Notes under the pieces: model-generated
What the model saw: the letters and a program-made list of their open reading frames with translations, nothing else
Told to the model about the DNA's origin: nothing
The model's database searches: none
Assembly (NCBI RefSeq): GCF_030294985.1
Contig: NZ_AP024718.1
Location: 372,001-436,000, forward strand
DNA length: 64,000 bases
Direction: 5' to 3'
From: Methylomarinovum tepidoasis
GTDB taxonomy: Bacteria > Pseudomonadota > Gammaproteobacteria > Methylococcales > Methylothermaceae
Position numbers and translations under genes: made by a program
Part shown: piece by piece, positions 18,240-19,554 of the stretch
How the letters are laid out: each line of letters begins with the position of its first letter
Position numbering within the stretch: position 1 is the stretch's first letter

Positions 18240-18836
18240 ATGTCCAACGAAACCGAAACGCTTCAGAGCAAGTACAAAAGCGATCTCATCATGTGGGCCG
18301 GGATCGGCGTGGTGAGCGTCATCTTCATCGTCATCTTCTCGGTCTTCACCACCACCTCGCCCATCGACCTGGCCAAGAAGATCCTCAGCGCCATCCTGAT
18401 CATGTTCCTGCCCGGTTACGTGATCGTCAAACTGTATCTGGACGATCTCAAACTGAGCCGGAACCCGGCGGTGGACAAGTTCATCCTCTCCTTCGGCCTG
18501 TCGATGGTGACGGTGCAGTCGCTGTCGTTTCTGGTCAACTACTTCGCCGTCTATGGCGAAAACCTGGACCAGGAAGTGAGGATTCAGGTCGAGAACCTGA
18601 TCCCACCGATGATCGTGACCCTGGTGATCGCCACTGCCGTGGGCCTGAAGTTCTTCTCGAACAAGATCGCCGCCCAGTGGGAGAAGCTCAACGGCTGGTT
18701 CCAAGCCAAAATGGGCGAGATGGGTTCAACCCTGCTGCTGGTACTCGCCACCGCCCTGGCCCTGGCCACGCTGCTGGGCATTCTGCGGTTGACCCTCTAC
18801 ATCGCCATGAAGGTCATGGGGATCCAACCCTACTGA
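18240..18836 (+). CDS. Five-helix inner-membrane protein, unknown function
   Basis: 198 residues with hydrophobic segments at about 18-40, 46-66, 82-104, 117-138 and 163-190. The SAILIMFLPGYVIVKLYL segment resembles the LPGY motif of DUF1616-type membrane proteins, but I would not assign the family firmly. A GGGAGG ribosome site precedes the ATG. It is probably co-transcribed with the exported lipocalin-like protein upstream and ends at a clear terminator (18865-18891). Confidence 0.75.
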   Translation: MSNETETLQSKYKSDLIMWAGIGVVSVIFIVIFSVFTTTSPIDLAKKILSAILIMFLPGYVIVKLYLDDLKLSRNPAVDKFILSFGLSMVTVQSLSFLVNYFAVYGENLDQEVRIQVENLIPPMIVTLVIATAVGLKFFSNKIAAQWEKLNGWFQAKMGEMGSTLLLVLATALALATLLGILRLTLYIAMKVMGIQPY

Positions 18837-18864: not shown

Positions 18865-18891
18865 AGGCGGGCCTGCAGGCCCGCCTTTTTC
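18865..18891 (+). terminator. Intrinsic terminator
   Basis: AGGCGGGCC-TGCA-GGCCCGCCT followed by TTTTC, 29 bp after the stop of the five-helix membrane protein gene. Confidence 0.9.
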
Positions 18892-18934: not shown

Positions 18935-18948
18935 TTGATCCACATCAA
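18935..18948 (+). promoter_or_regulatory. FNR/Anr binding site (perfect consensus)
   Basis: TTGATCCACATCAA matches the FNR box TTGAT-N4-ATCAA at every position. Its centre (18941.5) lies about 41 bp upstream of the start predicted from the TATAAT at 18970-18975. That is the class II activator position. Confidence 0.75.
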
Positions 18949-18969
18949 AACGCCGACCGGCCAAGATCC

Positions 18970-18975
18970 TATAAT
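18970..18975 (+). promoter_or_regulatory. -10 element of FNR-dependent promoter
   Basis: A consensus TATAAT with no recognisable -35 hexamer, as expected for a class II FNR promoter. The predicted start is about 18982. Confidence 0.7.
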
Positions 18976-18981
18976 TGGAGC

Positions 18982-19047
18982 CAGACGTGTTGCAGCCATC
19001 GTGACGGGGTGGATTTGAAGGCGGTCAGAGACTGTGGCCGCCTTTTC
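18982..19047 (+). ncRNA. Candidate FNR-activated small RNA
   Basis: The transcript predicted from the FNR promoter is only about 65 nt long. It begins near GCCAGACGTGTTGCAGCC and ends in a terminator hairpin (AAGGCGGTCA, loop, TGGCCGCCTT at 19018-19044, then TTTTC). It contains no convincing ORF: the only coding gene beyond is rplI on the other strand. The unpaired 5' ~35 nt could base-pair with mRNAs. The arrangement resembles E. coli FnrS (an FNR-induced sRNA), but I see no sequence match to it. This is inference from promoter and terminator; expression is untested. Confidence 0.55.
19018..19046 (+). terminator. Terminator of the candidate small RNA
   Basis: AAGGCGG...CCGCCTT stem, extended by U-G, C-G and A-U pairs, with a 7-nt loop and TTTT. 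Confidence 0.75.
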
Positions 19048-19052
19048 TGTAC

Positions 19053-19082
19053 AAAAAAGGCGGATCTTGCGATCCGCCTTTT
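19053..19082. terminator. Bidirectional terminator downstream of rplI
   Basis: AAAAAAGGCGGATC-TTGC-GATCCGCCTTTT works in both directions. It closes the rpsF operon on the minus strand and backs up the small-RNA terminator on the plus strand. Confidence 0.9.
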
Positions 19083-19104
19083 CGCTTCCGGATACCGGGG
19101 AGGC

Positions 19105-19554
19105 TCAGGCTTCCGGCTGCACCACCACTTTGACGGTGGCGGTAACGTCCGGATGGAGCCGCAGCTCCACCTCGTATTCGCCGGTCTGGCGCAGCGGCCC
19201 TTCCGGCAGCAGCACCTCCTGACGCGATACCGACACCCCGGCGGCGGTGATGGCCTCGGCCAGATTCTGGGTGCCGATGGAACCGTAGAGCTTGCCTTCC
19301 GGACCTGCCTTCTGGGTGATGACCACCTCCAACTCGGCCAGTTTTTCGGCCCGCTCCCGGGCCGCTTGCAACGCCTCGGCGGCCTTGCGTTCCAGTTCCG
19401 CCCGGCGCTGCTCGAACTCGGCAATGCGCTCGGGCGTGGCCCGTACGGCCTTGCCCTGGGGAATCAGGTAGTTGCGGGCATAGCCGGGCTTGACGTCAAC
19501 CCGGTCGCCCAGATCGCCCAGATTGGCGATTTTTTCAAGCAGAATCACTTCCAT
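19105..19554 (-). CDS. rplI: 50S ribosomal protein L9
   Basis: 149 residues with the L9 N-terminal rRNA-binding domain ([20 protein letters not shown], then [16 protein letters not shown]). A long connecting helix rich in Ala/Glu/Arg (residues ~50-80) follows, and then the C-terminal domain ([15 protein letters not shown]). It is the last gene of the rpsF-rpsR-DUF2232-rplI operon and ends at a bidirectional terminator. Confidence 0.98.

What the first reader, a model, noticed from the sequence alone, without database searches (positions are those of the whole stretch)
18935..19047. Candidate anaerobically induced small RNA under a perfect class II FNR promoter
A flawless FNR box (TTGATCCACATCAA) is centred ~41 bp upstream of the start predicted from a consensus TATAAT. 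Transcription from it would make only ~65 nt before a good terminator, with no ORF. The region lies between two complete operons. It is functionally analogous to E. coli FnrS, but I see no sequence similarity, so it could be a new oxygen-responsive regulatory RNA. Possible targets include the nitrate/nitrite genes and aerobic respiratory genes elsewhere.
Basis: partly seen in the sequence, partly recalled or inferred. Interest (0 to 1): 0.7.

Follow-up and report, generated by a model that had tools for sequence, protein, structure and literature searches.

The report
Low-oxygen small RNA in a methanotroph
A hot-vent methane-eating bacterium carries what looks like a short RNA gene switched on when oxygen runs out, and its loop matches the start of the genes for one subunit of the methane-oxidising enzyme, so it may help the cell retune that enzyme at low oxygen.

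Summary
The window lies in Methylomarinovum tepidoasis IN45. A perfect FNR box (18935-18948) sits 21 bp before TATAAT (18970-18975); with A18983 as +1 it is centred at -41.5 (class II). A ~64-66 nt RNA without ATG ends at a terminator (19020-19046). The whole unit recurs beside rplI in M. caldicuralii IT-9, next to a different upstream gene, with exact spacing and an unchanged 25-nt 5' block. Eight other congeners and ~190 further Methylococcales lack it, and no Rfam family matches. An FNR with the cluster cysteines is encoded. New lead: the RNA's first hairpin (UGUUGCAGCCAUC) is complementary over 11, 11 and 13 nt to the start codons of three of the four pmoC copies, in both species; pmoC3 ranks first of 826 sampled start regions. 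The fourth pmoC escapes by synonymous codons and has its own class II FNR box. Best reading: an FNR-activated, FnrS-like but unrelated small RNA that shuts pmoC1-3 at low oxygen while FNR turns on pmoC4. Transcription and pairing are not shown. mlaF is an equally strong predicted target. IT-9 lacks nitrate genes yet keeps the RNA, which argues against them as main targets.

The parts
18935..18948 (+). FNR box TTGATCCACATCAA, centred at -41.5 from A18983 (class II position)
   Evidence: conserved as TTGATCCACGTCAA in M. caldicuralii IT-9
18949..18969 (+). 21-bp spacer between box and -10; same length in IT-9, sequence diverged (6/21 changes)
18970..18975 (+). -10 element TATAAT
   Evidence: identical in IT-9
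18983..19048 (+). predicted small RNA (about 64-66 nt), no ATG
   Evidence: 4/66 changes in IT-9
18988..19000 (+). predicted pairing site UGUUGCAGCCAUC (5' arm and loop of hairpin 1), complementary to the start codons of pmoC1, pmoC2 (11 nt) and pmoC3 (13 nt); inside a 25-nt block unchanged in IT-9
19020..19046 (+). intrinsic terminator GGCGGTCA-GAGACTG-TGGCCGCC-TTTT; in IT-9 the outer pair is lost and the stem is 7 bp
19054..19083 (.). second, bidirectional terminator (rplI side) that would stop read-through at about 105 nt
18240..18836 (+). upstream neighbour, membrane protein (weak DUF1616 match) with its own terminator at 18865-18886; not the neighbour in IT-9
19105..19554 (-). convergent neighbour rplI (ribosomal protein L9)

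Best explanation
The locus is a small-RNA gene whose class II promoter is switched on by FNR when oxygen is scarce. The ~65-nt RNA has a first hairpin whose loop and 5' arm (UGUUGCAGCCAUC) pair with the start codon and first codons (AUGGCUGCAAC) of pmoC in both pmoCAB operons and of the single pmoC3, blocking translation initiation of a subunit of the oxygen-consuming particulate methane monooxygenase. The fourth pmoC (pmoC4) has synonymous codons that escape pairing and its own class II FNR box, so FNR would change which PmoC is made: directly up for pmoC4, through the RNA down for the others. mlaF is a likely second target. Shown: the sequence elements, their recurrence in IT-9, the complementarity. 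Inferred: transcription, FNR dependence, pairing in the cell, direction of the effect.
For: Promoter: box, spacing and TATAAT; the only such site in the genome. FNR: orthologue in all 10 congeneric genomes with CxxC-x5-C and the later Cys. Unit: whole gene recurs in IT-9 with a different upstream gene; spacer diverges faster than the RNA (6/21 v 4/66, Fisher p=0.011) while its length is kept. Target: the three longest complementarities among 826 gene starts are pmoC3, pmoC1 and pmoC2; after accessibility correction pmoC3 is first among them (-12.7 kcal/mol) and pmoC2 in the top ten, pmoC1 at -7.3; in IT-9 pmoC1/2 rank 3-4 of 467 and pmoC3 scores -12.0. Of 100,000 dinucleotide shuffles, 0.22% reach 11 nt with either pmoC start and 8 reach 13 nt with pmoC3. 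pmoC4 ranks 287 of 828 and carries an FNR box 22 bp from a -10-like hexamer, conserved in G003, G004, G009. In 824 kb sampled, this locus and pmoC4 are the only two places with FNR box plus -10-like hexamer.
Against: No transcript data. The two species are 92.9% identical overall (PMC10950024), so 94% identity of the RNA is not by itself constraint, and only one relative has it. The pmoC start sequence is older than the RNA (G002, G005, G006, G007 have it without the RNA), so the match could be luck: genome-wide about one gene would match 11 nt by chance. The sample was not blind (some stretches were chosen to hold pmoC). mlaF pairs as well as pmoC3. Opening the sRNA hairpin costs 5-6 kcal/mol. 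The U tail is short, the terminator is weaker in IT-9, Hfq was not found in the sampled DNA (not searched genome-wide). The FNR recognition helix has Ala where E. coli has Glu209.
Confidence: 0.42

Rival explanations
1. A genuine FNR-activated small RNA, but pmoC is not its target: the match to ATGGCTGCAAC is chance, and it acts on mlaF, other mRNAs, or a protein.
For: mlaF pairs over 13 nt in IN45 and 14 bp (with G-U) in IT-9, and the mlaF starts of congeners without the RNA that could be read do not match. pmoC starts were complementary before the RNA existed. About 0.8 genes are expected to match 11 nt by chance (own estimate).
Against: The top three complementarities in 826 gene starts are all pmoC, a priori the most oxygen-relevant genes of a methanotroph; the 13-nt pairing is kept in both species; the one pmoC that escapes is the one with an FNR promoter.
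Confidence: 0.35
2. Not a functional regulator: an FNR-driven short transcript without trans-acting role (promoter debris, or a transcript that only insulates the convergent rplI terminator).
For: Present in only 2 of 10 congeneric genomes; RNA identity near the genome average; modest folding z-scores (-1.8, -1.05).
Against: Promoter elements and spacing kept while the spacer drifts; a 25-nt invariant block holds the predicted pairing site; terminator directly after the body.
Confidence: 0.15
3. The FNR-like box is not used, or is used by another CRP/FNR protein, so the RNA is constitutive or absent.
For: FNR of this genus has Ala at the position of E. coli Glu209; a second, CRP-like protein exists.
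Against: The same TTGAT-N4-RTCAA box stands at class II spacing before pmoC4 in four species with this FNR; the other inverted repeat (GTGGAT-TTG-ATCCAC) is not kept in IT-9.
Confidence: 0.08

Closest known systems
FnrS of Escherichia coli and other enterobacteria
   Same: FNR class II site at -41.5 (PMC3032703), short RNA from its own promoter; represses genes for aerobic functions (PMC8139620)
   Different: No sequence or Rfam similarity; other neighbours; predicted seed pairs at pmoC and mlaF starts; Hfq dependence unknown
Gonococcal FnrS, the FNR-induced small RNA of Neisseria gonorrhoeae
   Same: Unrelated RNA with class II FNR promoter and terminator, regarded as functional equivalent of enterobacterial FnrS (PMC3032703)
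   Different: Different lineage; similarity not tested here; transcript proven there, not here
PaiI of Pseudomonas aeruginosa and DenR of Paracoccus denitrificans
   Same: Small RNAs of low-oxygen metabolism in respiring bacteria
   Different: PaiI depends on NarXL with ANR probably indirect, DenR acts on denitrification (PMC8139620); here a direct FNR site, kept in a species without denitrification
Oxygen-dependent exchange of pmoCAB operons in Methylacidiphilum fumariolicum SolV
   Same: Isoforms of the methane monooxygenase exchanged with oxygen supply (PMC3404531)
   Different: Whole operons at transcript level, mechanism unknown; no small RNA described

Membership tests
FnrS (enterobacterial sRNA family) | Sequence/structure homology to FnrS | tested here: not met
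   No Rfam family at gathering threshold, and none resembling FnrS at E up to 10
FnrS (enterobacterial sRNA family) | FNR class II site centred at -41.5 | tested here: met
   Sequence layout with assumed +1 A18983; the start site itself is predicted
FnrS (enterobacterial sRNA family) | Hfq-dependent repression of aerobic-function mRNAs | not testable with these tools
   Only complementarity computed; Hfq not searched genome-wide
FNR-activated trans-acting small RNAs (functional class) | Oxygen-sensing FNR encoded (4 Cys ligands, HTH) | tested here: met
   (best NCBIfam match is the Fnr model, 204 bits, below its cut-off of 228)
FNR-activated trans-acting small RNAs (functional class) | Non-coding, short, own promoter and intrinsic terminator | tested here: met
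   no ATG in 18976-19050
FNR-activated trans-acting small RNAs (functional class) | Low-oxygen, FNR-dependent transcription | not testable with these tools
   No expression data
FNR-activated trans-acting small RNAs (functional class) | Pairing region complementary to translation start of target mRNAs | tested here: inconclusive
   11-13 nt with pmoC1-3 and mlaF starts in both species; chance not excluded
Neisseria FNR-induced sRNA (gonococcal FnrS) | Sequence homology | not tested
   Not compared directly; no matching Rfam family was found

The most novel reading that the evidence does not exclude
FNR runs a subunit switch in the particulate methane monooxygenase: it activates pmoC4 directly and represses pmoC1-3 through this small RNA, the two arms being kept apart by synonymous codons at the pmoC start. 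To my knowledge and in the papers searched, that would be the first small RNA known to act on methane monooxygenase, and it would give a function to the extra pmoC copies.
Probability: 0.3. Interest if true: 0.78.

Novelty: new member of a known kind. Interest (0 to 1): 0.6.

Why it matters
Methane oxidation by pMMO needs oxygen, yet methanotrophs thrive at oxic-anoxic boundaries. In the papers searched no small RNA acting on pmo genes was found. The role of extra pmoC copies is an open question, with several hypotheses listed for this very family (PMC4688376). If right, the finding makes both directly testable by two plasmids and a reporter, and shows that FnrS-like regulation has arisen independently in another lineage.

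Tried and rejected
Wider homologues: blastn over 61 genomes, a two-sequence covariance model over 201 genomes of the order, plasmids and viral contigs; only IT-9 is real; the weaker hits (up to 27 bits) have no FNR box and lie mostly in coding DNA. Nitrate genes as targets: not supported, because IT-9 has none. The second identical FNR box in the genome (60320) is inside pqqB coding sequence and was set aside. An alternative inverted repeat GTGGAT-TTG-ATCCAC overlapping the box is not kept in IT-9. Small ORF: no ATG. Antisense to rplI: two terminators precede it. A first gene caller picked wrong frames and was replaced. Plain duplex energies were uninformative because they allow long gapped duplexes. 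The PmoC query was a composite of two copies; it was used only to find loci.

Full report
What is there. If A18983 is +1 the box is centred exactly at -41.5. The combination of a perfect box and TATAAT at 19-23 bp is expected about 0.0001 times in this genome and occurs once. A second terminator at 19054-19083 belongs to rplI and stops read-through.

Where it is. The genome's contigs (2,421,873 and 20,514 bases) equal the published sizes of Methylomarinovum tepidoasis IN45, a moderately thermophilic deep-sea methanotroph; the relative that carries the same unit (G003, 2,694,844 bases) equals M. caldicuralii IT-9 (PMC10950024). IN45 grows at 1% O2 and partly denitrifies; IT-9 has no nitrate assimilation, denitrification or hemerythrin genes (same paper).

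Conservation. In IT-9 the box (one change, ATCAA to GTCAA), the exact 21-bp spacing, TATAAT, the RNA and its terminator lie beside rplI as in IN45, but the gene on the other side is a long-chain acyl-CoA ligase whose TGA stop falls inside the FNR box, instead of a DUF1616-like membrane protein. Changes: box 1/14, spacer 6/21, -10 0/6, RNA 4/66 (spacer v RNA p=0.011). The first 25 nt around the start and hairpin 1 are unchanged. Caution: the species are 92.9% identical overall, so the RNA is not conserved beyond average; the case rests on the pattern, not on the level. Of the other eight congeners, the seven in which rplI was found have other genes there, and none has the RNA anywhere by this search. 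Over 201 genomes of the order a covariance model finds only these two (102 bits; next 27).

The regulator. All ten genomes of the genus encode an FNR. The IN45 protein keeps C-x2-C-x5-C and the fourth Cys, so oxygen sensing is expected. Its recognition helix reads LALATVSR where other Methylococcales have ETVSR, i.e. Ala for Glu209. The box nevertheless looks functional in this genus, because TTGAT-N4-RTCAA stands at class II spacing before one pmoC gene in four species.

What it probably acts on. A pattern search with the reverse complement of the hairpin-1 region led to pmoC. IN45 has four pmoC copies: two pmoCAB operons, a single pmoC3 and a single pmoC4 before an rpoH-like gene. pmoC1 and pmoC2 begin ATGGCTGCAACG (11 nt Watson-Crick, 12 with G-U) and pmoC3 begins gATGGCTGCAACA (13 nt), all pairing with UGUUGCAGCCAUC at 18988-19000; the same holds in IT-9. 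pmoC4 encodes the same first residues, MAAT, with GCA GCT in place of GCT GCA and does not pair (-1.5 and 0 kcal/mol). Among 826 gene starts from about a third of the genome, the three longest complementarities are these three pmoC genes; with accessibility, pmoC3 is first of the 826 (-12.7), pmoC2 about tenth (-8.4), pmoC1 -7.3 and pmoC4 287th of 828. In IT-9 pmoC1/2 are third and fourth of 467 and pmoC3 scores -12.0. Shuffling the RNA 100,000 times gave an 11-nt match to either pmoC start in 0.22% and a 13-nt match to pmoC3 in 8 cases. In 824 kb, only this locus and pmoC4 have an FNR box with a -10-like hexamer at class II distance.

Weak points of the target claim. The sample was not blind. 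pmoC starts in congeners without the RNA have the same sequence, so the target is older than the RNA. mlaF (hand-added from a genome-wide search) pairs equally well, -13.3 and -13.1 in the two species; the mlaF starts of the species without the RNA that could be read do not match. About one chance 11-nt match per genome is expected. None of this is expression evidence.

Physiology. pmoA mRNA falls sharply under oxygen limitation in Methylomicrobium album (PMC9241951), and in Methylacidiphilum the pmoCAB operons are exchanged with oxygen supply (PMC3404531). A low-oxygen RNA acting on pmoC is therefore plausible but not demanded. The role of extra pmoC copies has been open (PMC4688376).

Comparison. 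It works like FnrS, whose E. coli promoter is also class II at -41.5 (PMC3032703), but it is not a member of that family. The gonococcal RNA is the precedent for an independent equivalent. No small RNA of methane monooxygenase was found in the papers searched.

Verdict. Small RNA gene under FNR: likely (about 0.75-0.8). Pairing with pmoC1-3 as its main work: about 0.4. Switch between pmoC copies: about 0.3.

Noticed in passing
L238/L144 (G000:C1:1764629-1764714), L239, L240, L244: The single pmoC4 before an rpoH-like gene has an FNR box 83-85 bp before its ATG with class II spacing to a -10-like hexamer, in IN45, IT-9, G004 and G009; no other pmoC copy examined has one.
   Followed up: partly
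L147, L146, L148, L197: FNR of this genus has Ala at the position of E. coli Glu209 in the recognition helix (LALATVSR), unlike the other Methylococcales examined (ETVSR).
   Followed up: partly
L124-L127, L130: In other Methylococcales a class II FNR promoter with TATAAT stands before bacteriohemerythrin genes (Pfam hemerythrin checked for L124 only).
   Followed up: partly
L131:1501-1640 (G190:C2:3660590): Another FNR box + TATAAT followed by about 90 nt without ORF and a strong terminator: a second, unrelated FNR small-RNA candidate in another methanotroph, with an anti-Shine-Dalgarno stretch ACTCCTC.
   Followed up: no
L333:1480-1530, L330: mlaF start codons of IN45 and IT-9 are complementary to the RNA over 13-14 bp, but not in the congeners lacking the RNA whose mlaF start could be read.
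   Followed up: partly
L033:1326-1345: In IT-9 the TGA stop of the upstream acyl-CoA ligase gene lies inside the FNR box, marking a rearrangement breakpoint right at the promoter.
   Followed up: partly
window 18865-18886: Perfect bidirectional GC-rich terminator hairpin after the upstream DUF1616-like gene, so read-through into the small RNA is unlikely in IN45.
   Followed up: no
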